From: a virus
Virus record (IMG/VR): IMGVR_UViG_3300042484_002457
Location: 1-64,000 of that record
Direction: 5' to 3' (one strand)
DNA: 64,000 bases
Positions 27,605-57,460 of the stretch are shown one piece after another. A program made the position numbers and the translations under genes. How positions within the stretch are numbered: position 1 is the first letter of the stretch; each line of letters begins with the position of its first letter. Under the pieces are notes generated by a model. The model worked only from the letters and a program-made list of their open reading frames with translations, was not told the DNA's origin and did no database searches.

Positions 27605-29030
27605 TGTACAACGACTGTTTTTGGAAATGATGCTGGAGGATGCAAGTTCTTATGTACGAGTCCAAAACATCTACAACCCACAGAACTTTGACCGAAGTCT
27701 AAGAGCCGCGGCTGAATTCGTCAAGGAACATTCAGACAAGTACAAGACACTGCCAGATCGTACACAGATTTCTGCGGCTACTGGAGTTAAACTTAGTCCT
27801 GTGCCTGAACTAAACGAAGGACACTTTGATTGGTTCATGGCCGAGTTTGAAAGCTTTACCAAGCGCCAAGAACTTGAACGTGCAATTTTAAAAGCAGCAG
27901 ACTTGTTGGAAAAGGGCGAATACGATCCTGTTGAAAAATTAATCAAAGACGCTGTGCAAATTTCGTTAACCAAAGATCTAGGCATGGATTTTTGGCAGGA
28001 CCCTGAAGGCATGTTCACAAGATATTTTGATTCTGGTGGACAAGTTAGCACAGGTTGGCCACAACTGGATAGACTGTTGTATGGCGGATTCAGTCGTGGT
28101 GAATTAAACATCTTTGCAGGTGGATCAGGATCAGGTAAAAGCTTGGTCATGATGAACATTGCCTTGAACTGGGTACAACTGGGTCTGCATGGTGTTTATA
28201 TAACACTGGAACTCTCAGAAGAACTTACAGGTTTGAGAACAGCAGCCATGCTTACAGACATGAGCACCAAGGACATTCGCAAAGACAAAGGTACAGCAGC
28301 ACTAAAAATCAAGATGGTGGGCAAAAAGGCCGGTAGCTATCAGGTCAAGGCACTGCCAGCACAAAGCAACATCAATGACATTCGTGCATTCTTGAAAGAA
28401 TATCAGATCAAGACAGGACACCGTGTGGACTTTATCATGATTGACTACTTGGATTTGTTGATGCCCGTGAGTGCAAAAGTCAGCCCCAATGACTTGTTTG
28501 TGAAAGACAAATATGTGAGTGAGGAACTGCGCAACTTGGCCAAGGAGCTGGGTATACTAATGGTAACAGCTAGTCAGTTGAACCGATCAGCTGTGGAAGA
28601 AATTGAATTTGATCACTCGCACATTTCGGGTGGTATCAGCAAGATCAACACAGCAGACAACGTGTTTGGTATTTTTACAAGTCGGGCTATGAAAGAGCGT
28701 GGCAAGTATCAAATTCAGTGTATGAAGTCGCGTAGTAGTACAGGCGTGGGGCAAAAGATTGATCTAGAATACAACATCGAAACCATGCGTATCACTGATG
28801 AAGGCGGCGATAATCCTGACTCGTATCGTGGCGGCCCGTCGGCTAGTGTCATGGATTCAATCAAGGCCAAGAGCCAAGTCAAGGCAGCAGAAGCTGATGG
28901 CAATGCCACTGCACCTTGGGAACCGGCAGCTAGTACCAAAGGGCGTTACTCAGATGATACTGGCAAAGTCACAGCAGATGTTCAAAGTACCAAACTCAAA
29001 CAGCTACTGGGCAAAATCAAGTCATCATGA
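27582..29030 (+). CDS. Replicative DNA helicase, gp41-like (DnaB family)
   Basis: 482 residues (T4 gp41 has 475). The N-terminal helical domain covers about 1-130. The RecA-like domain has Walker A AGGSGSGKSLVM (about 184-195), the Glu in TLELSEEL, Walker B DFIMIDYLDLLMP (about 283-295), the TASQLNRSA sensor segment (about 327) and CMKSRSSTG with the arginine finger region. It unwinds the fork ahead of the polymerase and carries primase gp61. TTG at 27582 is the best in-frame start; the next ATG (27630) would remove part of the first helix. The Ser/Ala-rich C-terminal tail is variable. Confidence 0.93.
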   Translation: MLKDYSVDVQRLFLEMMLEDASSYVRVQNIYNPQNFDRSLRAAAEFVKEHSDKYKTLPDRTQISAATGVKLSPVPELNEGHFDWFMAEFESFTKRQELERAILKAADLLEKGEYDPVEKLIKDAVQISLTKDLGMDFWQDPEGMFTRYFDSGGQVSTGWPQLDRLLYGGFSRGELNIFAGGSGSGKSLVMMNIALNWVQLGLHGVYITLELSEELTGLRTAAMLTDMSTKDIRKDKGTAALKIKMVGKKAGSYQVKALPAQSNINDIRAFLKEYQIKTGHRVDFIMIDYLDLLMPVSAKVSPNDLFVKDKYVSEELRNLAKELGILMVTASQLNRSAVEEIEFDHSHISGGISKINTADNVFGIFTSRAMKERGKYQIQCMKSRSSTGVGQKIDLEYNIETMRITDEGGDNPDSYRGGPSASVMDSIKAKSQVKAAEADGNATAPWEPAASTKGRYSDDTGKVTADVQSTKLKQLLGKIKSS

Positions 29031-30142
29031 ACAGCGACCTGTATTGCTCTCTAATACACGGCGGACTTGAACTAAACTTCAAAGGCGGTGAAGCCACTGC
29101 CCAACATTGTTGTTTGCGCCCAGGTAGATTTGACATAGATCCCAATACTGATTTTTGGAAGGATCCCAGGTTCATTCCTTTGAGAAAACTAAACGATCAA
29201 AATCGTTGGGCACCCGGCTGCGAAAACTGCCAATCAGTAGAGTCAATTGGGTTGCCAAGCTTTCGCACAGGTATGAACGCAGGACTCAGTGGCAGCAACA
29301 ACAATCTTTCAGGACCCACACGCATTGATCTCATGTTTGATATCAGTTGCAATATTGCATGCAGAACCTGTGGAACACATTCTAGTACCTTTTGGCAAAA
29401 GCATCTCAAACAGCACAACGAGTGGACAGCGCCAATCTCTGTTGGCCAAAATCACAGCACTGTGATTGCTGCACTAGAACAGCTTGACCTGAGTAATTTA
29501 CAAATGCTAGTGTTCAGCGGCGGAGAGACTTTGCTGGGCAACTCACACTGGGAAGTGGCCAAGTGGTTGGCTGATCATGTGCCCAACGCTCAACAACAAC
29601 TGACCGTGTGTTTTCAAACCAATGGAACTCAGTCAATCAATTCACGAAATTACGAACTAATACATAAGTTTCGATTGGTCAAACTGCATCTAAGTCTTGA
29701 TGGAGTTGGCGAACAATTTGAGTATTTGCGTTGGCCTGCTAGTTGGAATCAAGTGGTTGACAACATGCTGGAAATTCGTGATAGTGCACCCAGCAACATG
29801 ATGTTTCACATTGAAGAGACGGTGAGCATCTTTAATCTGTATTACACACAGCGACTGGAATCTTGGGCCCGGGAAAATTTTGCTGCCAATCGTGAAGGTG
29901 ATGTTGTCAATCACAACAAACATGTGGCACGTGGAACGTTTGCCCTGGCAAATTGCACTCAAGAATATGTAGATGCAATGCAACAAAGTGAATACAAAAA
30001 TCTAATTCCAAAAAACTGGAAAGAAAATCCATCACGCATTTCTGCAATGATGGATTCCATACGCAAGTTTGATACTTTCAGGTCTGAATCGTTTGAGCAC
30101 ACGTTCCCTGAAGTGGCAAAGTTGTATACAAGATATCTTTAA
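29027..30142 (+). CDS. Radical SAM protein with extra Cys clusters
   Basis: 371 residues. CNIACRTC (about 106-113) is the CxxxCxxC cluster that binds the 4Fe-4S/SAM centre, followed by MLVFSGGETLL (GGE motif) and VCFQTNGT, HLSLDGVGEQFEYLRW. Before it, CCLRPG (about 28) and CENCQS (about 65) are further cysteines, as in SPASM/twitch-type radical SAM enzymes. Such phage proteins are frequent in aquatic T4-like genomes, but the substrate is unknown. Candidates are a peptide, tRNA or nucleotide. It overlaps the helicase stop by 4 bases and is convergent with the next gene. Confidence 0.85.
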   Translation: MNSDLYCSLIHGGLELNFKGGEATAQHCCLRPGRFDIDPNTDFWKDPRFIPLRKLNDQNRWAPGCENCQSVESIGLPSFRTGMNAGLSGSNNNLSGPTRIDLMFDISCNIACRTCGTHSSTFWQKHLKQHNEWTAPISVGQNHSTVIAALEQLDLSNLQMLVFSGGETLLGNSHWEVAKWLADHVPNAQQQLTVCFQTNGTQSINSRNYELIHKFRLVKLHLSLDGVGEQFEYLRWPASWNQVVDNMLEIRDSAPSNMMFHIEETVSIFNLYYTQRLESWARENFAANREGDVVNHNKHVARGTFALANCTQEYVDAMQQSEYKNLIPKNWKENPSRISAMMDSIRKFDTFRSESFEHTFPEVAKLYTRYL

Positions 30143-31142: not shown

Positions 31143-31391
31143 ATGCAAAAAAAGACCCGCAGTTTATTAGAAGAATTAGAGTCGCTGTACATTGAAAGAG
31201 ACCGCCGCCATCTAATAGAAAGCCGCGCCAGCAACATTATCACCAGTGCAATCAGACTGGTTGAACAGATTGAAGCAGAATTTCCCGCTGATCAAGCAGA
31301 AAATCTCACAAGAAAATTACTCAATGCCATACGTACCAAGGACGCTGGAAAATTCTCCAGGTCAGTAAGGAGAACCAATGCAGATTCATGA
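31143..31391 (+). CDS. Small helical conserved phage protein
   Basis: 82 residues, all helical and highly charged (KKTRSLLEELESLYIERDRRHLIESRASNIITSAIRLVEQI). The family is known to me only as a short conserved protein in T4-like phages, placed before head or assembly genes. It overlaps the next gene by 14 bases. It may be an assembly chaperone or a scaffold partner, which is inferred from charge and position. Confidence 0.7.
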   Translation: MQKKTRSLLEELESLYIERDRRHLIESRASNIITSAIRLVEQIEAEFPADQAENLTRKLLNAIRTKDAGKFSRSVRRTNADS

Positions 31392-32100
31392 AATTACAGC
31401 TCGTAAACTAAATGAAATATCCTTGGCCGGAGGATTTGCCGGTGCTCTTGCAAACAAGTTTGTTTCGTCAACTCTGGGTATTGATGCCAGAGATACTCCG
31501 TCTGACGATCCCTTGGCAAGATCCAAAGGTGCCATGGAGATCAATAAACAGCTCGCTGGAAAAATGGGGCAAGAGCTGAACAAGATGTGGGGTCAGGTGG
31601 TTCAAAATTTCATGGCCACCCATAAGGACACCAGCGGCTATCCATTGAACAATATAAAAAGTGCGGCGCCAGCAGATGCTGCCAAGTTGAGTCAGGAATT
31701 AGATAAAATCGTTGTAGATATGTCTCGCGTCGGCAAAGCCCTGGACCAATGGGCAGCAGGAATCAACACTGGTGATCCCAAGGATGCTGCTGAAGCCAGA
31801 GTAATGGTAGGACAACTCAAAGACATCAAAGATGCTATCTGGAAAGAAACACTAGATCCATCAGATACTAGTGGCCAGGCCCGAGCTCAAGCGTTTGCCA
31901 AGCTTGGTACAGCCATTGCACAAATACAAAACATCAATAGCTTTGTTGAACAATCTAAAAAATCAGGTGCTGCACCCGGAACACCAAGAGTAACAACAGA
32001 TCCAAGAACAAACGCTTTCATGGTTGATCGTCAACCATATGATCCAAAGAACCCCGTTCACGTAACAGCCGTGAAAGACTTTATAAACTCAAAAAAATGA
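31378..32100 (+). CDS. Hypothetical protein, possible assembly/virion protein
   Basis: 240 residues beginning MQIHEITARKLNEIS, an opening shared in style with other genes of this cluster (MRINEVES at 36585, MKLNELAAP at 35680). The middle is helical (INKQLAGKMGQELNKMWGQVVQNFM), and the end DPRTNAFMVDRQPYDPKNPVHVTAVKDFI looks like a short conserved tail. A common N-terminal tag on several proteins of one cluster fits prohead components with a shared targeting or cleavage sequence, but no protease site has been shown. The next gene overlaps by 4 bases. Confidence 0.65.
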   Translation: MQIHEITARKLNEISLAGGFAGALANKFVSSTLGIDARDTPSDDPLARSKGAMEINKQLAGKMGQELNKMWGQVVQNFMATHKDTSGYPLNNIKSAAPADAAKLSQELDKIVVDMSRVGKALDQWAAGINTGDPKDAAEARVMVGQLKDIKDAIWKETLDPSDTSGQARAQAFAKLGTAIAQIQNINSFVEQSKKSGAAPGTPRVTTDPRTNAFMVDRQPYDPKNPVHVTAVKDFINSKK

Positions 32101-34001
32101 ATCTTTTAAAAGAAGGCGGCAATGTTTTCAAAGACAAACAAGGCCAACCACTAACACAACGAATCAACCAAGCTGATGTGCCAGGCACTGTACAATGGCT
32201 GGAATCTGTGCTGGGCATGGATCTCAGCGGAGAAAAAGACCCTGCTACTGGATACCCCAGTCGTTGGCTGGGCAGCACAGGAAAAAAAGCCACGTCAGGT
32301 GACCTTGACATTGCCATAGACACAAACGAAATCAGCAAAGGTGAACTGGCCAACAAGCTCACAAATTTTATCGTCAAGCAGCAGTTAGATCCAAAAGAAT
32401 GGGTCAGGCAAGGCGGGGAAGTACACTTCCGCACTCCCATCAATGGTGACCCTGATCGGGGCTATGTGCAGACTGATTTTATGTTTTTCCCTAATCTTGA
32501 CTGGGGCCAATTCTTTTATGGCGGCGCAATAGACTCTGCTTACAAAGGCATGAACCGTAATGTGCTCATGAGCAGCATTGCCAAGAGCCTGGGACTCAAA
32601 GTGGGTGCCAACGGTGTATTCAGCAGAGCTAGCGAAAAGCTGGTAAGTCAAGATCCTGATCAATTAGCACAGTGGCTACTGGGATCCAACTTTGATCGTG
32701 GGCACTTAAAAAATGTTGAAAGCATTTATGCAGCACTCAGTAATGATCCTGCCATGGATGCCAAGCTTAAAGATTTTCGTGATTATCTAGCTCGAGAAGG
32801 TTTACAAGAACCACAGCAGGGCGTGGCCGAAAGTGAAGCAGGCTTTTTGGGACGACTGCGTGATCGTATTGTGAATCGTGGATATGTTGCTCTTGTAGAA
32901 GCAGAAGCAGCCGGAGTAGGCGGTAGAGCCAAGGGCATCGAACACCTGGAAGACTATGTGTTTCGCAAAGGCACAGCTGGCATACAACAGGCCTTGGAAA
33001 TTGTGCAGCAGGCCACAGCGGCTCCCAAGACTACCACAGCCAAATGGGATGGTAAGCCTGCTGTGATATTTGGACGCAAACCTGACACAGGCGAGTTTGT
33101 GCTCACAGACGGGTCAGGATTTGAAGCCAAGGGCTACGATGGCCTGGCCACAAGTCCCCAAATGATGGCTGACATTCAGAACCGTCGATCTGGTGATAGA
33201 ACTGAGTTGATTCAGATCTATGCCACATTGTTTCCTTTGCTAGAAGCATCACTGCCGCAAAACTTTCGAGGATATGTCAAGGGTGATTTGTTGTACATGA
33301 GCACCCCGCCCCTGCAAGCCGGCAATTATGTGTTCAAGCCCAACACTATTGAATACCGTATTCCAGCAAAGAGTGCCCTGGGCCAGCGCATCAGCAACAG
33401 TACCATTGGCATTGCTATTCACTCAATGTATGCTGATGTGGGCGAGCCACGTCAGCCACTGAGTGGAGTAGCATTTAATCCAGTACCTGGACTGATGCTG
33501 GAAAAACCAGCTACTCCCAAGGCTTTGCAGACTGAGACCAATGCTGAAAAACAACTCAGAGAGATAGTTCGCACACACGGCAAAGACATTGATACCTTGT
33601 TTAATCCAGTTGAACTGCGAGCACACAAGATTACTGACCTAGCCAAACTAGCAGTAGACTACATCAACTCCAAGGTTGGTGCACCGCTAAACAAGCAAAC
33701 CCTGTTGCCAGAATTTGGTGACTGGCTACAACAAAAAGTTACCCCACAAAAGTTCAACAACATCGTGGAATATCTACGTAGTCCAACATCCAACACCACT
33801 GCATTGGCCGCTGCATTCACAGCATTTGTTCTGTTACATGATCTAAAAATGTACCTTAAACAGCAGGCCGATACTGAGTACCCAGGGCAAGAAGGCTGGG
33901 TTATGGCTACCCCTGCTGGCTACGCCAAATTGGTCGGCAGATTTGATCCCAAAGCTTTTGCTGCTCAAAATCGCGCCCAAAACAACCCTCAACAGGCATA
34001 A
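32097..34001 (+). CDS. Two-domain nucleotidyltransferase / ligase-like protein
   Basis: 634 residues. The N-terminal part has LGSTGKKATSGDLDIAID (about 58-75), the G-S...D-x-D pattern of the polymerase-beta-type nucleotidyltransferase fold. QGVAE at about 241 separates it from the second part. There, TTAKWDGKPAVIFGRK (about 313-328) looks like motif I (KxDG) of ATP-dependent ligases and capping enzymes, FRGYVKGDLLYM (about 390) like motif III, and EGWVMATPAGYAKLVG (about 600-615) like motifs IV and V. I recall the second part as a conserved unknown (DUF6267-type) in T4-like phages. A role in RNA end repair or nucleotidylation is inference. Confidence 0.6.
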   Translation: MNLLKEGGNVFKDKQGQPLTQRINQADVPGTVQWLESVLGMDLSGEKDPATGYPSRWLGSTGKKATSGDLDIAIDTNEISKGELANKLTNFIVKQQLDPKEWVRQGGEVHFRTPINGDPDRGYVQTDFMFFPNLDWGQFFYGGAIDSAYKGMNRNVLMSSIAKSLGLKVGANGVFSRASEKLVSQDPDQLAQWLLGSNFDRGHLKNVESIYAALSNDPAMDAKLKDFRDYLAREGLQEPQQGVAESEAGFLGRLRDRIVNRGYVALVEAEAAGVGGRAKGIEHLEDYVFRKGTAGIQQALEIVQQATAAPKTTTAKWDGKPAVIFGRKPDTGEFVLTDGSGFEAKGYDGLATSPQMMADIQNRRSGDRTELIQIYATLFPLLEASLPQNFRGYVKGDLLYMSTPPLQAGNYVFKPNTIEYRIPAKSALGQRISNSTIGIAIHSMYADVGEPRQPLSGVAFNPVPGLMLEKPATPKALQTETNAEKQLREIVRTHGKDIDTLFNPVELRAHKITDLAKLAVDYINSKVGAPLNKQTLLPEFGDWLQQKVTPQKFNNIVEYLRSPTSNTTALAAAFTAFVLLHDLKMYLKQQADTEYPGQEGWVMATPAGYAKLVGRFDPKAFAAQNRAQNNPQQA

Positions 34002-35238: not shown

Positions 35239-35693
35239 ACCATCAACAAAAAGTAGAGCGTTGGGCTGAAAAAGAGATTCGCCGCAATTTTGATCACTTG
35301 ATAATTGACGATGGTAATCAGCTGATTGCTTTTGGGTTCTATTACCTAGAACAACGTGATCAGGGCTGGGTAGTAAGTGATCAAGATCGCGTTATCCATC
35401 AATTTCAAAACAAAAAAACAGCCATAAGTTGGTGTGTGGCTGACAAATACAAACGATACCAATTGGCCAATAACATAATAAATCTTGATCGCAAGAAACA
35501 AACAATTGCAGCAGACATATACTGTCGCAGAACACTGGGTGAGCGCAGTCGATCTGAATCTTTTTATGAAACTGTGACAGCAAAAATACAGCCCAAAATT
35601 ATGCAGTACAACGGGATAACATCCGAACTTGAAAAATGCATAAATCAGACTAAATATCTACAAATTAGAGGATTCTCAAATGAAACTAAATGA
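35235..35693 (+). CDS. Hypothetical protein
   Basis: 152 residues, with an N-terminal alpha/beta part (NFDHLIIDDGNQLIAFGFYYLEQRDQGWVVSDQD) and a helical C-terminus. No motif or family recognised. It overlaps the upstream gene by 4 bases and the downstream one by 14, so it belongs to the 34550-36935 operon of conserved phage proteins. Confidence 0.65.
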   Translation: MNHQQKVERWAEKEIRRNFDHLIIDDGNQLIAFGFYYLEQRDQGWVVSDQDRVIHQFQNKKTAISWCVADKYKRYQLANNIINLDRKKQTIAADIYCRRTLGERSRSESFYETVTAKIQPKIMQYNGITSELEKCINQTKYLQIRGFSNETK

Positions 35694-36582
35694 ACTTGCG
35701 GCACCCAAGCCCAGTAAACAAATTGGCAAAGTATTCGAAAGTTACTTTGGTCGCACTATCAAATTTGATCAACTTGATCGTGGTCAAGCTCGACTCATGT
35801 TGAGAAAAGTGCAAGGGCTATTGAGCGAACAGCGTAACTCTGTAACTCGTCATCAAAGCGAGCGCAACCCTGCGTACTTGAAGCTGGTTATGATGGAGTC
35901 TGCCTTGGTAGCTCGTATCAAAGAAGAACAAATACCGGTGCCCCCAACAACCACTACACCCGCGCCAGGTGCAAAAATTGAAGTCAAGGACCCCAAGTTG
36001 GCCGCTGCACTGAAAAAGAGCACAGCTGGTCAGCAGTTGAATCCTGAAGAACAAAAGCTTGTGGCCGGAGCTGCCATGATGAAGGCCGAAAGTCGCCTAC
36101 GTCGAGCAATGACACGCCTGAACGAAAGCGAAGTTCAACAAGCACAAGTGGTTCTTGCTGCCCAAGACATGGTGGACCGCATGCAAGGCATGTTGGAAGA
36201 TGTTAGCGAACTACAATTCAAAGAACTACCTGCTCTAATAGACTCTATCAAGAATCAAGTCGGTATTGATCAAGCAACACAGTTCAACGCTGATGCTACC
36301 GCAGCCCTGGCAGGACTATTACAGAACATCCAAGGCGCCAAACAACAGCTTGACTCTGCATTGAATGTGGTAACTGGTGCAGCGCCTGCTGGTGGAGTTG
36401 ATGCTGCTGCCGATGCTGCTATGGCTGGTGCCGACATGGGAGCTGCTGCTGGTGCCGACATGGGCGCTGCTGGTGCCGAAATGGATGCTGCTGACATGGG
36501 CGCTGCTGATGATTTAGCTGCTGAGTTACCTGAACCTGGTGCAGAACCAACTGGTGCTGTACTTGGACGTGGCAAGAGATAA
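35680..36582 (+). CDS. Probable scaffold or assembly protein
   Basis: 300 residues. The N-terminal segment (IGKVFESYFGRTIKFDQLDRGQARLMLRKVQGLLSEQRNS, NPAYLKLVMMESALVARI) is a conserved helical block I associate with T4-like aquatic phages. The middle is predicted helical. The last 80 residues are low complexity, with repeated GADMGAA / GAEMDAADMG units, acidic and methionine-rich. High helix content and low-complexity tail fit a scaffold or internal head protein. This is inference; no protease motif has been confirmed. Confidence 0.6.
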   Translation: MKLNELAAPKPSKQIGKVFESYFGRTIKFDQLDRGQARLMLRKVQGLLSEQRNSVTRHQSERNPAYLKLVMMESALVARIKEEQIPVPPTTTTPAPGAKIEVKDPKLAAALKKSTAGQQLNPEEQKLVAGAAMMKAESRLRRAMTRLNESEVQQAQVVLAAQDMVDRMQGMLEDVSELQFKELPALIDSIKNQVGIDQATQFNADATAALAGLLQNIQGAKQQLDSALNVVTGAAPAGGVDAAADAAMAGADMGAAAGADMGAAGAEMDAADMGAADDLAAELPEPGAEPTGAVLGRGKR

Positions 36583-36584
36583 AA

Positions 36585-36935
36585 ATGCGAATCAACGAAG
36601 TTGAATCTTCGCCAACGCCGGCCCCAAATCAACTAATGGGGTTGGCGGATTTTCTTGCGGGCCGGGCCAAAGACACAAATGGCCCTAAACAAATAGACAA
36701 GGCCACATTCACCGAATTGGCCAGCAGTATGGGAATCATACTAACAAACAATCAATTAGTAGATATTGTTTCTAAACCACCATTAAGCAACATGTTTGAA
36801 CCGGTGGATCCCAATTCTGACAAACTCATGTTCAAAGGTGCTGAACAGCTTGACGTAGGCATGCCAGTTAACAAAGCACAGGACGTTGTGGCTCAATCAG
36901 CCAAAAAGGCCATGAATCGAGACCGCGGCGTCTAA
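36585..36935 (+). CDS. Small conserved phage protein
   Basis: 116 residues opening MRINEVESSPTPAPNQLMGLADFLAGRAKD. The middle has an EF-hand-like helix pair (KATFTELASSMGIILTNNQLVDIVSKPPLSNMFEPVDPNSD), though without a complete calcium loop. It starts 2 bases after the scaffold-like protein and shares the (K/R)(L/I)NE(L/V) opening with it. An assembly role is suggested by position only. Confidence 0.65.
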   Translation: MRINEVESSPTPAPNQLMGLADFLAGRAKDTNGPKQIDKATFTELASSMGIILTNNQLVDIVSKPPLSNMFEPVDPNSDKLMFKGAEQLDVGMPVNKAQDVVAQSAKKAMNRDRGV

Positions 36936-37014: not shown

Positions 37015-37299
37015 ATGAAAAAAGCTGCAATTGTTGTTTTAATGAGTGCATTGGTTAGTACTAACGCCCTGGCCTGGGGCGATCGTGAACAAGGCATCCT
37101 AGCTGGCATGGCAGCATTGTGGGCCTTCCAGAAACTTAACCAAGCCGATGCTGCCCCACCGCAGCCTGTTTATGTTAGACCTCAACCAGTGTACGTCGAT
37201 CGCCCTGTGGTTGAATATCAGCGGCAACAGTGTAGTCCCTGGATCGAAACTCGTAACTGGGACGGTACTGTGACTAGATCTAGAACCTGTAACTACTAA
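37015..37299 (+). CDS. Small exported protein
   Basis: 94 residues with a clear Sec signal peptide (MKKAAIVVLMSALVSTNALA, cut before WGDR). The mature part has a Pro/Val/Tyr-rich region (PQPVYVRPQPVYVDRPVVEY) and two cysteines (QQCSPW, RTCNY) that can form a disulfide in the periplasm. The end motif W.....GT.T(R)SR(T)C resembles small bacterial envelope proteins. TAGGAG precedes the start. It leads the Fe-S operon, with the next start overlapping by one base. Confidence 0.75.
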   Translation: MKKAAIVVLMSALVSTNALAWGDREQGILAGMAALWAFQKLNQADAAPPQPVYVRPQPVYVDRPVVEYQRQQCSPWIETRNWDGTVTRSRTCNY

Positions 37300-37682
37300 T
37301 GGCATATTCAGAAAAAGTAATTGAGCATTACGAAAACCCACGCAACGTGGGTAGCTTTGCCAAGGATGACCCCGAAGTGGGTACTGGCATGGTTGGTGCA
37401 CCGGCCTGCGGTGATGTAATGAAACTACAAATCAAAGTGCAAGATGGCATCATCACAGACGCAAGATTCAAAACCTACGGTTGCGGTAGTGCGATCGCAA
37501 GTTCCTCTCTTGTTACCGAGTGGGTTAAAGGCAAGACGCTGGACCAAGCCGCAGCTCTTAAAAATTCAGAGATTGCTGAAGAACTTGCCCTGCCCCCAGT
37601 CAAAATCCATTGCAGCATCCTTGCTTCTGATGCCATCGCTGCTGCAATCAAAGACTATAAGGAAAAACACGATCAAACATAG
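37299..37682 (+). CDS. iscU: IscU-like Fe-S scaffold protein
   Basis: 127 residues, full length for IscU. All three cluster-ligand cysteines are present: GAPACGDVM (about 36), TYGCGSAIASSS (about 62) and KIHCSILA (about 105). LPPVK, the segment bound by the HscA chaperone, is also intact. IscU assembles 2Fe-2S and 4Fe-4S clusters on sulfur delivered by IscS and passes them on. Phage clients could include the radical SAM enzyme encoded at 29027. It is followed by a homing endonuclease and then iscA. Confidence 0.95.
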   Translation: MAYSEKVIEHYENPRNVGSFAKDDPEVGTGMVGAPACGDVMKLQIKVQDGIITDARFKTYGCGSAIASSSLVTEWVKGKTLDQAAALKNSEIAEELALPPVKIHCSILASDAIAAAIKDYKEKHDQT

Positions 37683-37708: not shown

Positions 37709-38473
37709 ATGAAAAATCTATGTAACTGTGGTTGTGGTATTCCTCTAAGAAAAGATAACAAAACTGGATATCAAAAAGGTCACAAGCCTTGCCCTGTATG
37801 CGGAACTCTTGTTAAAGGGTCAGGAATAGAATGCTGTTCAAAATCTTGTGCAGCAAAGTTGCATTGGCAGCGAAATCCAGATATGAAAGAGTCACGAATA
37901 TGGAATGCTGATCGGTATGCGACTCGAGAAAAAAATAGAGACACCTGGACTAAAAAGTTGTCTGACTCTTGCAAAGGCAGAATACCTTGGAATAAAAATA
38001 CACAAGGATTACAAACAGCCTGGAACAAAAACTTACCAGCCAATCAGCAACCGTTTTACGGCAAAACTCATAGTGCAGAATATTATCAAAAACGGGACAA
38101 AACTGTTTTTGAAAAATACGGCGTTGCCTGTGCCCTTGAATTAGCAAAAACATCTCCGAGAAGCAAAAAAGAAAAACTCTTAGAAAATGTGTTAGTTGGA
38201 TATCAATCAAATAAGCGAGTGGGTAGATACAAACCTGATTACGTAAATGAAACCACAAAACACATAGTTGAAGTTTATGGTGATTATTGGCATTGTAATC
38301 CAACTGTATTCAAAGAAGATTTTTATCATCCTCAGTTAAAGAAAACTGCCAAAGAAAAATGGCAATTGGATTTTGAAAGACAGACCAGCCTGGAATCAAT
38401 GGGATATAATGTTACTATTGTTTGGGAGAGTAAGTTGGAAGAATTTATAAAACAATATGATAACGTTCACTGA
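37709..38473 (+). CDS. Homing endonuclease, Vsr/EDxHD-like nuclease domain
   Basis: 254 residues. The N-terminal part has two small zinc-finger-like pairs (CNCGCG, CPVCGTL...CCSKSC). The middle has NUMOD-like repeats (KLSDSCKGRIPWNKNTQG, FYGKTHSAEYYQKR). The end is a Vsr-like nuclease: YKPDYVNETTKHIVEVYGDYWHCNP, then KWQLDFERQTSLESMGYNVTIVWES. It resembles free-standing T4-like homing endonucleases of that fold. It sits exactly between iscU and iscA, and its last 17 bases overlap the iscA start. A short upstream in-frame extension to 37694 (TTG) is less likely. Confidence 0.82.
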   Translation: MKNLCNCGCGIPLRKDNKTGYQKGHKPCPVCGTLVKGSGIECCSKSCAAKLHWQRNPDMKESRIWNADRYATREKNRDTWTKKLSDSCKGRIPWNKNTQGLQTAWNKNLPANQQPFYGKTHSAEYYQKRDKTVFEKYGVACALELAKTSPRSKKEKLLENVLVGYQSNKRVGRYKPDYVNETTKHIVEVYGDYWHCNPTVFKEDFYHPQLKKTAKEKWQLDFERQTSLESMGYNVTIVWESKLEEFIKQYDNVH

Positions 38474-38780
38474 CACAGCCCGAAAAAAAATCGCCAAACT
38501 AGTTGCAGTCAAGGGCTATGCAGGAATTCGGCTGGGCGTTAAAACTACAGGTTGCTCAGGACTTGCTTATGTGTTAGAATACGTAAACACCTACCAACCC
38601 CAATCGGGCTGTATCAACTATGCTCAACCTGAGTTTATTGTGTTGGTAGATCAAAAACACGATGTGTACTTGCAAAACACCGAAGTTGATTATGTTCGAC
38701 AAGGCCTTAACGAAGGCTTTGAATTTGTCAACCCCAACGAACGCGATCGCTGCGGATGTGGCGAAAGTTTTAGAGTTTGA
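38457..38780 (+). CDS. iscA: IscA-like Fe-S carrier protein
   Basis: 107 residues of the HesB/IscA family. The three ligand cysteines are present: TTGCSGLAY (about 35) and RCGCGESF (about 99 and 101). It accepts clusters or iron and hands them to target proteins. A Y/N/S-rich insertion (NTYQPQSGCIN) gives one extra cysteine. It forms an Fe-S unit with iscU, now separated by the endonuclease gene. The dCMP deaminase gene starts 4 bases inside its end. Confidence 0.93.
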   Translation: MITFTDTARKKIAKLVAVKGYAGIRLGVKTTGCSGLAYVLEYVNTYQPQSGCINYAQPEFIVLVDQKHDVYLQNTEVDYVRQGLNEGFEFVNPNERDRCGCGESFRV

Positions 38781-50433: not shown

Positions 50434-50786
50434 TGGGCCTGGATATGTATGCATATGTTGGCACCAAAGGCCAGCGCGATGATTACTATGACAACCGAGA
50501 AATTGCTTACTGGCGCAAGCACCCTAACCTGCATGGTTGGATGCAACGTCTTTGGGAAAGCCAAGGCAACTCGGGTGACTTCAATGGCGACGAACTTGAA
50601 CTGACTTGGGCAGATCTTGATGCGCTGGAACAGGCAGTAACACACGGGCAGTTGCCTGCCACAGGTGGATTCTTTTTTGGCAACAATGCTGACGAGCACT
50701 ATCGCAAAAGTGACTTGGAGTTCATCAAGCATGCTCGTGCTGAGTTGTTCTTGGGACTCCGAGTGTTCTACAATAGTTCGTGGTGA
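50433..50786 (+). CDS. Conserved small protein (MGLDMY family)
   Basis: 117 residues from ATG 50433. The opening MGLDMYAYVGTK and the YWRKHPNLHGWMQRLWE stretch mark a small family found in phages and bacteria, function unknown to me. It also has a Cys-free, aromatic and acidic middle. Co-translated with the preceding gene. It ends 10 bases before the ligase start. Confidence 0.72.
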   Translation: MGLDMYAYVGTKGQRDDYYDNREIAYWRKHPNLHGWMQRLWESQGNSGDFNGDELELTWADLDALEQAVTHGQLPATGGFFFGNNADEHYRKSDLEFIKHARAELFLGLRVFYNSSW

Positions 50787-50796
50787 AAGCGTAAAT

Positions 50797-52173
50797 ATGA
50801 TTAATGAAATTGACTTTAGCAACAATCGGTTTGAGGGTGTAATGGCCGCAGGATGGATCCGCGATCTTGAATCCAGCGACAGTAGAATTCACAAAGAAAA
50901 AACAATTGAAAAAGCCTTGATGGCTGCAAAACTGGGCAGTACAGACGCACAGATTTTCTTGTTCAACTGCTATCAGGCCTACAATCCTTTCTACACATTC
51001 AATGTGCGGCAAGTGCCAGAAACGTCGGATCTAACTGGCCGCGACAATCCTTGGCCAGTGTTCTGGGCCTTGTTGGAAAATCTACGCACCCGTGGTATCA
51101 CAGGACACCGTGCTCGTGATCGTATTCAAGAAGTAGCTGAACAGTTTGACTCAGACGAGTGGAATAACTTGGCCCGCAGAGTGATCATCAAAGATCTGCG
51201 TTGCGGCATCAGTGAAAAAACCATCAACAAAGTTGTAGGCAACACAGAGTGGCGGATCCCGGTGTTTAGTGTGCAGTTGGCTCAGGACAGTGCTGGACAG
51301 CCCAAAAAGATGAAGGGTATCAAGCGCCTGGAGGTCAAACTAGACGGCGTTCGTGTGGTGGCTGTGGTACAGGGCGATGTTTGCACACTGTACAGCCGCA
51401 ATGGCAAGGTGTTTGAAAACTTCCCGCAGATTGCTGAAGCCATTGAAGCCAACCGCAAGGCGTTTCAATACGGTCGCGGCACCGGTGGCCAATTTGTACT
51501 GGACGGTGAAATTGTGGGCGAGAGCTTTCAAAAGCTCATGAAACAGGCACATCGCAAGAGTGATGCCGAAACTTCGGGTATGGTGTATCATATTTTTGAT
51601 GTGTTGCCCCTGGATGCACTCAAAGAAGGTCATTGGAATGTGAAACAACAAGCTCGCCTGGAATGGTTGGACAGTGCCAAATTGGCCTTAGAAGAGACTG
51701 ACAACCTGCGAATTATGCCGGGCATGGATGTAGACTTGGACACAGCAGAAGGACATGACATCATGCGCCGATTTGCTGAAGCATCAGTGAAACAGGGCTA
51801 CGAAGGCATCATGATCAAGAATCTGGATGCACCTTATCTCTGCAAGCGTAGCGATTCATGGATGAAATGGAAACCCACCATCACTGTGGACTTGACCATT
51901 GTGGGGTTTGAAGAAGGCACTGGTCGCAATGAGGGTCGGTTGGGTGCTATAATTTACGAAGGAGTTGACAATGAACGAAATATTCGGGTTAATGTTGGTA
52001 CTGGTTATAGTGATAGCGATCGTGATGAGTTTTGGGCTGCACGGCATCGGCTACTTGGTGTCATCGGTGAAGTTGAAGCTGATGCAGTTACGCAAAACCA
52101 AGACGGAACATACTCACTAAGATTCCCCCGTCACAAACGATTCCGTGGATTTGAACCTGGAGAAAAATTATGA
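50797..52173 (+). CDS. ATP-dependent DNA ligase (gp30-like)
   Basis: 458 residues (T4 gp30 has 487). Motif I is EVKLDGVRVVAVV, with the adenylated Lys (about 179), motif III is VLDGEIVGES (about 234), motif IV is YEGIMIKNLDAPY (about 337), and motif V is DSWMKWKPTITVD (about 354). The N-terminal 170 residues form the DNA-binding domain. The OB domain ends the protein. ATG 50797 is selected; a longer frame from 50665 overlaps the preceding gene. It seals nicks in replication and repair. A late-like GCGTAAATA abuts the ATG. It overlaps the next gene by 4 bases. Confidence 0.95.
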   Translation: MINEIDFSNNRFEGVMAAGWIRDLESSDSRIHKEKTIEKALMAAKLGSTDAQIFLFNCYQAYNPFYTFNVRQVPETSDLTGRDNPWPVFWALLENLRTRGITGHRARDRIQEVAEQFDSDEWNNLARRVIIKDLRCGISEKTINKVVGNTEWRIPVFSVQLAQDSAGQPKKMKGIKRLEVKLDGVRVVAVVQGDVCTLYSRNGKVFENFPQIAEAIEANRKAFQYGRGTGGQFVLDGEIVGESFQKLMKQAHRKSDAETSGMVYHIFDVLPLDALKEGHWNVKQQARLEWLDSAKLALEETDNLRIMPGMDVDLDTAEGHDIMRRFAEASVKQGYEGIMIKNLDAPYLCKRSDSWMKWKPTITVDLTIVGFEEGTGRNEGRLGAIIYEGVDNERNIRVNVGTGYSDSDRDEFWAARHRLLGVIGEVEADAVTQNQDGTYSLRFPRHKRFRGFEPGEKL

Positions 52174-54875: not shown

Positions 54876-56261
54876 ATGTTCCTCAGTTATATTACTTTGG
54901 CAGTTGCACTAAGCCTGTCAGTTATTGCCGCCTACTACTCCATTGCTGGCCTCACCGCAATCTTTGCCGCTGCTGTGATCCCTATTGTGATCATGGGTGG
55001 CATATTGGAAGTGGGCAAAGTTGTAGTTACCCTGTGGCTGCACGAGTACTGGCAACAGTGTCGTTTGCTGATGAAAATGTACCTGGTTCCAGCTGTGGCT
55101 GTGCTGATGCTGATCACCAGCATGGGCATTTTTGGTTTCTTGAGCAAGGCACACAGTGATCAAAGCATGGTATCAGGAGACGTGCAGGCCAAGATTGCAG
55201 TCTACGACGAAAAAATAAAAGTATCACAGGACAACATTGATGTTAATCGCAAAGCACTTAAACAGCTCGATGAGGCGGTGGATCAAAGCATGGCACGCTC
55301 GACAACAGAAACGGGTGCTGACAAAGCAGTGGCCATCCGTAAGTCGCAAGCAAAAGAAAGATCTAGACTACTGGCTGAAATTGCAGCCGAACAGAAAACA
55401 ATTAGTGCTCTTAGACAAGAACGAGCACCCATATCGGCCGAAGTACGAAAGGTTGAAGCCGAAGTTGGACCTATAAAATACATAGCCAAGTTGATCTACG
55501 GGGACAACCCCGATGCCAACCTGCTGGAAAAAGCAGTGACCTGGGTTATCATTGTGATTGTTGCGGTGTTTGATCCATTGGCTATCATGATGTTGTTGGC
55601 TGCAACAGAAAGTTTGAAGTGGGGGCGAGAAAAGCGATTGGCGCCGCAACCAACAGAATCCAACAGTGAACCAGAAGTAGAGGAACAGCCACCTGCAGAA
55701 CCAGAACCTGAAAAATCTATACTGGAACAACATCCGTACCTTACCCAAGGATTTGCGCACTTTACAGACTTGCAGCCCATAGTACACAAACCTGAGCCAA
55801 AAATTGATCCAGTGCCGGTTGAAGTTGCTCAGTCAGTAGAAGATGAAGAAGAGCGACCTGAGGTACAAGATGCAATTCGTCGATGGAAAGCAGAGAATCC
55901 CAACGACACATTGAAAAATCAGCGAGCACGCCTGGCACGTGGGGAAATTGACGAGCTGCCTTGGATGCAGTTGATCCAAGTATTGCCAGCTGCCACTAAC
56001 TCAGGGTATGGGAATCAGTTCCCGGGTAATGCCAACAAAGGCGACATATTTGTAAGAATTGACAAACTGCCCAATTTGGTCTATAAGTACAATGGTAATA
56101 ACTGGATTAAAATTGACAAAAATCTAACAGACAGTTACACTTATGATGTTGCCTACATTGATCACCTAATTGACAGAATCAGTTGTGGTGAGTACGACAC
56201 CGAGCTTTTGAGCGAAAGCGAAAAAGAACAAGTTAAACAACGTTTAGAAAATCGAGCATGA
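54876..56261 (+). CDS. Membrane protein with long coiled coil
   Basis: 461 residues. Two or three spans at the N-terminus (LSYITLAVALSLSVIAAYYSI, IFAAAVIPIVIMGGILEVGKVVVTLWL, and YLVPAVAVLMLITSMGIFGFLS). A long charged coiled coil follows (about 105-200), then a further hydrophobic part (VTWVIIVIVAVFDPLAIMMLLAATESL) and a Pro/Glu-rich tail of 180 residues. The layout is that of a cell-envelope protein and is common in aquatic T4-like phages. The proposed start at ATG 54876 follows the late element; a GTG at 54855 is upstream. Function unknown. It overlaps clpX by 4 bases. Confidence 0.72.
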   Translation: MFLSYITLAVALSLSVIAAYYSIAGLTAIFAAAVIPIVIMGGILEVGKVVVTLWLHEYWQQCRLLMKMYLVPAVAVLMLITSMGIFGFLSKAHSDQSMVSGDVQAKIAVYDEKIKVSQDNIDVNRKALKQLDEAVDQSMARSTTETGADKAVAIRKSQAKERSRLLAEIAAEQKTISALRQERAPISAEVRKVEAEVGPIKYIAKLIYGDNPDANLLEKAVTWVIIVIVAVFDPLAIMMLLAATESLKWGREKRLAPQPTESNSEPEVEEQPPAEPEPEKSILEQHPYLTQGFAHFTDLQPIVHKPEPKIDPVPVEVAQSVEDEEERPEVQDAIRRWKAENPNDTLKNQRARLARGEIDELPWMQLIQVLPAATNSGYGNQFPGNANKGDIFVRIDKLPNLVYKYNGNNWIKIDKNLTDSYTYDVAYIDHLIDRISCGEYDTELLSESEKEQVKQRLENRA

Positions 56262-57460
56262 AACAAACTGAAACCCAAGATACTTGCAACTTTTGCGGTA
56301 AACACAAAGATGCAGTGGCCAAGCTCATAGTAGGTGAAGATGTGGCCATCTGCAATGAGTGTGTGGAGTTGTGCCAAACGTTGTTGAAAGACGACACACC
56401 AGTCAAAGCTGCTGTTAATGCAATCCTAGATCCACTAAAAGTCAAACAACATCTAGACCAATACGTGATTGGACAAACACGAGCCAAGCAGTTGTTGAGC
56501 GTGGCTATTGTAAACCACTACAAGCGCATCAATAACCCCAATCCTGAAACTGAAATTGAAAAGACCAACATCCTCATGCTTGGCCCCACAGGCTCAGGAA
56601 AAACTTTGTTGGCTCGCAGTGTAGCACGTTATCTTGACGTGCCCTTTGTTATTGCTGATGCCACCAGTTTGACCGAAGCTGGTTATGTAGGCGATGATGT
56701 AGAAAGCTTGATCTCAAGACTTTTTGCTGCCGCTGAATACAGTGTTGAACGTTGCCAGCGTGGCATTGTGTTCATTGACGAAATTGACAAAATTAGTCGT
56801 CGCAGCGAAAGTGCCAGTATCACACGAGATGTCAGCGGCGAGGGTGTTCAGCAGGCCCTGCTCAAGCTGGTAGAAGGCACCAAGTGCCGCATCACTCCAC
56901 AGGGCGGGCGCAAGCACCCATCAGGTGAGACCGTGGAAATTGACACCACAAACATTTTGTTCATTGCTGGCGGAGCATTTGTGGGACTGGACAATCTTGT
57001 CAAGAGTCGTATCAAGGGCACCAGCATTGGGTTTAATGCACAGGTGGTCAAGGACTCCAAGCCCAGCTTGGATCATACCACACCTGAAGACCTTATCAAG
57101 TTTGGCATGATTCCTGAGTTTGTGGGGCGTTTCCCCAGTTGGGTGGCACTCAGTGAGCTTTCCAAGCAGGATCTTGTGCACATTCTGCAAGACGTCAAGC
57201 ACAGCTATGTGTCGCAGTATTCATGGTTGTTTGGTGTTGACGAAATTGAACTGGACTTTACACCTGAAAGCCTGGATCTCATTGCTGAACGCACTCTTGC
57301 TAACAAAACTGGAGCTCGTGGGCTGCACAGTGAACTAGAACGTGTGTTGCTGCCACACATGTTTTACCTTGCAGAGTATCGCAGACAAGGCATCAAGACC
57401 GTGACAATTGACGTTGAGCAAGTAAATACTCCAAAGGAGCTTCGAGTTGTAAATGGGTAA
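56258..57460 (+). CDS. clpX: ClpX, AAA+ unfoldase
   Basis: 400 residues, full length (E. coli 424). The N-terminal zinc-binding domain is [30 protein letters not shown] (about 10-39). Walker A is [11 protein letters not shown] (about 109), the GYVGDD pore loop is at about 142, Walker B is [10 protein letters not shown] (about 170), [10 protein letters not shown] is the RKH loop, and [10 protein letters not shown] (about 257) is the IGF loop that docks ClpP. All parts needed to feed a ClpP are present; no clpP gene is in the window, so it would use the host's. It could redirect proteolysis or remodel proteins alone. Confidence 0.95.

What the first reader, a model, noticed from the sequence alone, without database searches (positions are those of the whole stretch)
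32097..34001. Two different nucleotidyltransferase-like domains in one protein
LGSTGKKATSGDLDIAID has the polymerase-beta-type G-S...DxD pattern. AKWDGKPAVIFG, YVKGDLLYM and EGWVM...YAKLVG resemble motifs I, III, IV and V of ATP-dependent ligases and capping enzymes. They are joined by a QGVAE linker. If real, one protein could add and seal nucleotides, as in tRNA or mRNA end repair after host anticodon nuclease damage. The gene lies among conserved virion-type genes, so it could also travel in the virion.
Basis: inference. Interest (0 to 1): 0.65.

Follow-up and report, generated by a model that had tools for sequence, protein, structure and literature searches.

The report
Phage polymerase-ligase fusion of polymerase X type
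This phage gene fuses a small repair-type DNA polymerase (related to polymerase beta) to an unusual ATP-ligase-type domain of a family until now listed as 'unknown function', so one protein can probably fill and seal a break in nucleic acid; relatives are widespread in large and marine phages.

Summary
The 634-aa ORF at 32097-34001 is real and conserved in hundreds of phage contigs. Residues 1-245 fold (AlphaFold2 pLDDT 94.6) like the palm plus thumb of family X DNA polymerases (pol beta Z 10.7; 163 residues, 3.1 A). A profile comparison agrees (score 36.3; best of 200 shuffled controls 19.4), with the three catalytic aspartates D69, D71, D127 in register. It is therefore closer to pol beta/lambda/PolX than to CCA or MNT enzymes, and is not recognised as RlaP, the known RNA-ligase partner. 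Residues 264-634 are Pfam DUF6267. Model and motifs (K316-W-D-G, E599-G, K611, 53 of 53 relatives) place it in the covalent nucleotidyltransferase/ligase superfamily, with no OB domain and a helical insert; whether it seals RNA or DNA is unresolved. The pairing is robust: 75 of 80 loci found with the polymerase domain alone carry a ligase-like domain fused or next door, in both gene orders. Best reading: a phage gap-fill-and-seal repair enzyme, probably for DNA, paralleling the PolX-ligase fusion of Phaeocystis globosa virus. tRNA repair is the main rival. A PA5oct homologue is annotated as a virion protein by mass spectrometry. No activity has been shown.

The parts
32097..34001 (+). Fused two-domain protein, 634 aa
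   Evidence: ORF; full-length homologues in IMG/VR at 64-100% identity; 36-member alignment with conserved motifs
32097..32813 (+). N domain (about residues 1-239): family X DNA-polymerase-like palm + thumb; catalytic D69, D71, D127; no 8-kDa/HhH domain
   Evidence: AF2 pLDDT 94.6; Foldseek PDB E 1e-5, prob 1.0 to PolX/lambda/mu/TdT; VIA Z 10.7 to pol beta, model 12-207 on chain 139-335; hhalign vs PolX 36.3 against a shuffled maximum of 19.4
32814..32924 (+). Linker (about residues 240-276): QGVAE / FLGRLRDRIVN / LVE
   Evidence: Linker comparison in 88 fused homologues; the first 15 residues of the C-domain model (264-278) have pLDDT below 50
32937..33998 (+). C domain (about residues 281-634): DUF6267, covalent nucleotidyltransferase (ligase-superfamily) core with helical insert; K316 (motif I), D397 (III position), E599-G600 (IV), K611 (V)
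   Evidence: Pfam PF19782 E 3e-29; AF2 pLDDT 92.3; Foldseek top 17 all ligases though E is 0.03 or weaker; VIA Z 8.6 to Naegleria RNA ligase, all 50 listed entries polynucleotide ligases; motifs invariant
31143..31391 (+). Small conserved partner gene 'S' (82 aa), upstream of the polymerase/ligase cassette
   Evidence: Homologues PA5oct EST35_0225 and Phosso 444; S precedes the cassette in most loci
31378..32100 (+). 240-aa ORF overlapping the start of the fusion gene; N-terminus MQIHEITARKLNE resembles a capsid-targeting peptide (inference)
   Evidence: ORF and reading of N-termini; no Pfam family above its cut-off and only one weak PHROG match (E 0.007)

Best explanation
The gene encodes a bifunctional gap-fill-and-seal repair enzyme. 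The N domain is a minimal family X polymerase (palm and thumb, without the 8-kDa domain) that would add one or a few nucleotides at a gap using two metals held by D69, D71 and D127. The C domain would charge K316 with AMP from ATP, pass it to a 5'-phosphate and seal the nick. Fusion, or co-production from overlapping genes, keeps polymerase and ligase at the same break. The likeliest target is damaged phage DNA, possibly straight after injection if the protein is packaged. Shown here: the two folds (by prediction), the conserved catalytic residues, and the conserved pairing. Inferred: activity, DNA as substrate, packaging.
For: N domain: Foldseek hits are led by PolX, pol lambda, mu, TdT and beta; VIA Z 10.7, 163 residues, 3.1 A over palm and thumb; profile score 36.3 vs PolX, shuffled mean 11.8, maximum 19.4, aspartates in register. 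C domain: every entry listed by VIA is a polynucleotide ligase, motifs invariant, and it is homologous to a sister family (hhalign 96%, P 2e-9) that gives sub-cut-off RNA_ligase matches (8 of 17 members, best E 1.2e-4). Pairing: 75 of 80 loci found by the N domain alone carry a ligase-like domain fused or nearby; both orders occur (N then C in the window; ligase then N in PA5oct, Phosso, Atu_ph07) and a reverse-order fusion exists (L215). DNA context: primase, DnaB-type helicase, SSB, UvsX, DNA helicase, exonuclease, ribonucleotide reductase and DNA ligase genes in the same 64 kb; no tRNA genes in the window. Precedent: PgV PolX, a PolX-NAD ligase fusion with demonstrated polymerase and ligase activity (PMC5537341).
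Against: No biochemistry. The C domain has no recognisable OB fold, which most DNA ligases need, and its nearest solved structures are RNA ligases, with weak Foldseek E-values (0.03 and above). The phage already has a T4-like DNA ligase in the window, so a second sealing activity needs a special role. The N domain lacks the 8-kDa gap-binding domain. Its sequence match to PolX rests on a small three-sequence PolX profile.
Confidence: 0.52

Rival explanations
1. RNA (tRNA) repair: the pol-beta-type domain restores nucleotides lost at an RNA break and the RNA-ligase-type domain reseals it, countering host anticodon nucleases, as proposed for RlaP with phage RNA ligases.
For: RlaP is a described RNA-ligase-associated pol-beta family in jumbo phages (PMC7824862). 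The nearest solved structures of the C domain are RNA ligases and its sister family gives weak RNA_ligase matches. No OB fold was recognised. Family X enzymes can also use ribonucleotides (general knowledge).
Against: None of 55 N-domain members matches RlaP in Pfam at E up to 1; hhalign against two RlaP proteins scores 14.5, within shuffled controls (mean 13.5; score). The N domain matches PolX palm and thumb instead. Some of these phages carry a separate real RlaP elsewhere (Atu_ph07; G006). No tRNA genes in the window and a DNA-metabolism neighbourhood.
Confidence: 0.27
2. The two catalytic domains act on something other than a nucleic-acid end: for example they nucleotidylate a protein or small molecule, in a capsid-associated modification pathway that also uses the cytidylyltransferase-like (HIGH-type) domain found next to or fused with DUF6267.
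For: DUF6267 sits beside or fused to CTP_transf_like domains (PTIM40_183, ACG-2014d_153, S-PM2 591 aa, L201, L266), which normally act on small molecules. A second NTase-like gene sits between N and C in L205. The PA5oct homologue is a virion protein.
Against: All solved structures listed for the C domain are polynucleotide ligases and for the N domain nucleic-acid polymerases. No small-molecule pathway gene is consistently linked in the loci examined.
Confidence: 0.14
3. Polyprotein reading (not exclusive of the others): the fusion is cut at V-x-E / L-x-E sites in the linker by the phage maturation protease, so polymerase and ligase act as separate virion or cell proteins.
For: The fused homologues listed keep at least one [LIV]-x-E in the linker, most of them two or more, and 'L-x-E' precedes the GGNVF start in nearly all. 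Unfused C genes start with MRAFEFLTE-type peptides at the same place. QGVAE recurs in the putative virion protein at 982-3471.
Against: The protease specificity of this phage is unknown, tripeptide motifs are weak evidence, and no peptide data exist for fused proteins.
Confidence: 0.2
4. The protein is a dead enzyme kept as a structural component.
For: ESI-MS/MS structural-protein note on the PA5oct homologue; the classical motif III glutamate is D397 here.
Against: All other catalytic residues are invariant in every relative examined; the sister family keeps a motif III glutamate (E108, 17 of 17).
Confidence: 0.06

Closest known systems
PgVPolX of Phaeocystis globosa virus (PMC5537341)
   Same: One viral protein with an N-terminal pol-beta-type (family X) polymerase and a C-terminal ligase; shown to fill gaps and seal DNA.
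   Different: PgVPolX has the 8-kDa lyase domain and an NAD+-dependent DNA ligase; the phage protein has only palm and thumb and a DUF6267 ligase-type core without a recognised OB fold. Different virus realm; no evidence of common descent of the fusion was found.
African swine fever virus PolX + AsfvLIG pair (PMC5330486, PMC6344480)
   Same: A minimal family X polymerase working with a viral ATP ligase in repair; AsfvLIG structures appear among the C-domain Foldseek matches.
   Different: Separate genes of a eukaryotic virus; AsfvLIG has its own extra DNA-binding N-terminal domain.
RlaP pol-beta NTase with phage RNA ligases (PMC7824862; Pfam PF10127, PF09414)
   Same: A pol-beta-superfamily domain genetically paired with a KxDG ligase in large phages.
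   Different: Different pol-beta family: no RlaP match and PolX-type thumb present; the ligase is DUF6267, not above the RNA_ligase cut-off.
Pfam DUF6267 (PF19782) / PHROG 455
   Same: The C domain is a member (E 3e-29); typical members are about 390-aa proteins of marine T4-like cyanophages.
   Different: Listed as unknown function; here fused to a polymerase domain and assigned to the ligase superfamily.
Bacterial LigD (NHEJ polymerase-ligase)
   Same: Polymerase and ATP ligase in one polypeptide.
   Different: LigD's polymerase is of primase (AEP) type (general knowledge); no Ku gene found in 11 records, including the window's own.

Membership tests
Family X DNA polymerase (pol beta-like) | Palm fold with GS...[G]DxD and a third Asp on the next strand | tested here: met
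   G59, D69, D71, D127 invariant in 55 of 55; hhalign puts them on the PolX aspartates
Family X DNA polymerase (pol beta-like) | PolX-type thumb after the palm | tested here: met
   VIA alignment of model 12-207 to pol beta 139-335, Z 10.7; hhalign continues through the GLKV..NGVF segment
Family X DNA polymerase (pol beta-like) | 8-kDa HhH / lyase domain | tested here: not met
   The N domain starts directly before the palm; no extra domain in the model. Also lacking in ASFV PolX (PMC5330486), so a usual rather than universal feature
Family X DNA polymerase (pol beta-like) | Recognition by curated Pfam palm/thumb models | tested here: not met
   No PolX model matches any of 55 members at E up to 1, nor the genomes by DNA_pol_B_palm: a divergent relative, not a catalogued member
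Family X DNA polymerase (pol beta-like) | Template-directed gap filling | not testable with these tools
   Needs enzyme assay
RlaP (PF10127) | Match to the RlaP profile | tested here: not met
   No match in 55 members at E up to 1; hhalign at shuffle level with two RlaP proteins only
CCA-adding / minimal NTase (MNT) | Fold closer to CCA/MNT than to other pol-beta families | tested here: inconclusive
   The 50 best listed structures are all family X; absence from the list does not exclude other families
Covalent nucleotidyltransferase (ligase/capping) superfamily | Motif I KxDG, motif IV EG, motif V K | tested here: met
   53 of 53 DUF6267 members and 17 of 17 sister-family members
Covalent nucleotidyltransferase (ligase/capping) superfamily | Motif III glutamate | tested here: inconclusive
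   Asp (D397) invariant at the presumed place in DUF6267; Glu (E108) invariant in the sister family
Covalent nucleotidyltransferase (ligase/capping) superfamily | Nucleotidyltransferase core fold | tested here: met
   VIA Z 8.6, 182 residues, 3.7 A to an RNA ligase; all 50 listed entries are ligases; weak Foldseek E-values
ATP-dependent DNA ligase | OB-fold domain and motif VI after motif V | tested here: not met
   The protein ends about 23 residues after motif V, in a helix
RNA ligase (PF09414, PF09511) | Match above the curated cut-off | tested here: not met
   No RNA_ligase match for the window protein at E up to 1; one DUF6267 member matches RNA_lig_T4_1 at E 0.016; sister-family matches to RNA_ligase stay below the cut-off where scores are shown
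DUF6267 (PF19782) | Match above the curated cut-off | tested here: met
   102.9 bits against a cut-off of 27

The most novel reading that the evidence does not exclude
DUF6267 is an overlooked ligase family of tailed phages. In marine T4-like cyanophages, where a T4-type DNA ligase is often missing, it supplies the sealing activity. In large phages it is coupled to a minimal PolX to make a virion-delivered polymerase-ligase that mends injected DNA.
Probability: 0.22. Interest if true: 0.78.

Novelty: new variant of a known kind. Interest (0 to 1): 0.58.

Why it matters
Two phage protein families of unknown function (DUF6267/PHROG 455 and the unnamed N domain) would gain a testable enzymatic role. 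A PolX-ligase fusion has been shown active in a giant algal virus (PMC5537341); a phage counterpart with different parts would be an independent solution to the same problem. DUF6267 was found in about 456 records named as cyanophages, so the assignment bears on how abundant marine phages finish and repair their DNA.

Tried and rejected
Direct sequence search of PDB with the whole protein or with domain profiles gave nothing credible. Pfam on 55 N domains gave only noise. A genome-contig scan with the N domain found no relative, so no cellular homologue was seen. RlaP membership: rejected at Pfam sensitivity, not supported by hhalign with only two RlaP proteins; attempts to collect more RlaP and phage PolX sequences found one and none. 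A single-sequence PolX template gave no significant hhalign result (P 0.096); the three-sequence profile did. NHEJ reading: no Ku in 11 records. C domain as the phage's replicative DNA ligase: rejected for this phage, which has a T4-like DNA ligase at 50665-52173. MNT/CCA structures do not appear among the 50 listed matches, which does not exclude them. Papers: no text on DUF6267; nothing found on phage PolX-ligase fusions.

Full report
Observation. The ORF at 32097-34001 encodes 634 aa. The quoted motifs are all present at residues 58-75, 241-245, 315-326, 393-401, 599-603 and 609-614. Full-length homologues at 64-100% identity were found in IMG/VR (80 of 412 kept). In 56 distinct homologues and in wider alignments of 55 (N) and 53 (C) members the catalytic residues do not vary.

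N domain. Residues 1-240 have no Pfam family. AlphaFold2 on a 55-member alignment gives pLDDT 94.6. Foldseek against PDB returns family X polymerases throughout the 50 listed rows: Thermus PolX, pol lambda, mu, TdT and beta (best E 1.3e-5, prob 1.0, TM about 0.45-0.5). VIA-align gives Z 10.7 to pol beta over 163 residues at 3.1 A, model 12-207 against chain 139-335, which is palm plus thumb. As an independent sequence test I built a small PolX profile from Thermus PolX, pol lambda and a phage PolX of Vibrio phage 2.275 (locus L348, itself matching PolX at E 1e-10). hhalign with the N-domain profile scores 36.3 (103 columns, P 5e-5) with GDLD on GDLD and QTDF on QVDL; 200 column-shuffled controls reach at most 19.4. 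Two RlaP proteins score at shuffle level (14.5). So the domain is a divergent family X relative without the 8-kDa domain.

C domain. Residues 281-617 match DUF6267 (E 3e-29). AlphaFold2 gives pLDDT 92.3 for 264-634. Foldseek E-values are weak (0.031 and above), but the first 17 matches are all DNA, RNA or tRNA ligases. VIA gives Z 8.6 to Naegleria RNA ligase (182 residues, 3.7 A), then fungal Trl1, human LIG1, T4 Rnl1 and T4 Rnl2, with no non-ligase among the 50 listed. Z 8.6 is only just above the tool's stated background of 7-8, so I lean on it together with the invariant motifs K316-x-D-G, E599-G and K611. A second family (Phosso 446, Atu_ph07, PA5oct EST35_0228; alignment A8) has KxDG, E, EG, K in 17 of 17. 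It gives weak RNA_ligase matches in 8 of 17 members (best E 1.2e-4) and DUF6267 matches in 5, and is homologous to DUF6267 by hhalign (96.2%, P 2.2e-9). In BFVD the PA5oct protein is also matched by the C model (E 1.9e-5). No OB domain was recognised; a helical region sits between the core and motif IV.

Pairing. Among 80 loci fetched with an N-domain alignment alone, 75 carry a DUF6267 or sister ligase-like domain in the same ORF or close by. Loci are partly redundant, so these are not independent events. Orders seen: N-C fused (window), N then C as overlapping genes, ligase then N as overlapping genes (Phosso, Atu_ph07; in PA5oct the ligase lies two genes upstream of N), ligase-N fused (L215), and N-DUF6267-cytidylyltransferase fused (L201). 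A small gene S (window 31143-31391) precedes the cassette in most loci. Cyanophage and Vibrio 2.275 DUF6267 proteins occur without the N domain.

Context. The window carries SSB, UvsX, DNA helicase, primase, DnaB-type helicase, exonuclease, ribonucleotide reductase and a T4-like ATP DNA ligase. There is no tRNA gene in the window. The record is a 209,543-bp virus contig; absence of a gene from it is not proof, as it may be a fragment. No Ku was found.

Virion question. PA5oct EST35_0231, the N-domain homologue, is annotated 'structural protein, ESI-MS/MS'; its ligase neighbour EST35_0228 is not. In fused homologues the N-terminus reads L-x-E-GGNVF and the linker contains V-x-E and L-x-E sites; this recalls T4-type maturation sites, from general knowledge only, and is inference.

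Mechanism. Shown by prediction and conservation: a two-metal polymerase site and a lysine-adenylate ligase site in one protein. Inferred: fill a short gap, then seal it. DNA is favoured by the PolX thumb, the genomic context and the PgV precedent (PMC5537341); RNA is favoured by the nearest solved ligases and the RlaP analogy (PMC7824862). I put about 0.5 on DNA and 0.27 on RNA.

Broader lead. DUF6267 was found in 371 Synechococcus, 61 Cyanophage and 24 Prochlorococcus records. A search with the window's DNA ligase hit 1,885 phage records, but none of these three names is among the ten most frequent, whose lowest count is 47. P-TIM40 has no match to DNA_ligase_A_M, NAD ligase or RNA_ligase models. 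A review notes that quasi-core replication genes, a group that includes gp30 ligase, are often absent in marine cyanophages (PMC2993671). DUF6267 as a substitute ligase there is a hypothesis; the five cyanophage-group proteins read (P-TIM40, syn9, ACG-2014d, S-B05, Melnitz-2) keep KxDG, EG and the motif V lysine.

Noticed in passing
window 982-3471: 829-aa ORF with a PHROG virion-structural-protein match carries three QG[VM]AE strings near its C-terminus, the same string as the linker of the finding; possibly maturation-protease sites.
   Followed up: partly
L201:1142-3862: Triple fusion: PolX-like domain, DUF6267 and a cytidylyltransferase-like (CTP_transf_like) domain in one 907-aa ORF.
   Followed up: partly
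L205:7747-8868: A second nucleotidyltransferase-like gene (GSSAY...GDVDLQ...VQIDFM) lies between the polymerase and ligase genes; hhalign relates it to the N domain (score 39.6, P 7e-5).
   Followed up: partly
L084:7983-9173 (P-TIM40), L359 (syn9), L360 (ACG-2014d): In cyanophages DUF6267 sits directly before a cytidylyltransferase-like gene; in P-TIM40 and syn9 that protein's N-terminus (MRFLDFIKEA, MKKFSAFLSEA) resembles a capsid-targeting peptide.
   Followed up: partly
G003:C1:155652-156482 and W02:C1:118290-119135: Some jumbo phages hold a second copy of the PolX-like domain elsewhere in the genome.
   Followed up: no
window 31378-32100, 35680-36582, 36585-36935: Several ORFs start with M[KRQ][IL][NH]E[ILV], similar to MRLDEI of the MS-detected PA5oct protein EST35_0230; a possible shared capsid-targeting signal.
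   Followed up: no
window 37299-37682 and 38457-38780: ORFs that read like IscU/NifU and IscA/HesB iron-sulfur assembly proteins, near a radical-SAM gene at 29027-30142 (by eye from the sequence, not tested; radical SAM match).
   Followed up: no
window 56258-57460: ORF with a PHROG ATP-dependent protease match, ClpX-like by eye.
   Followed up: no
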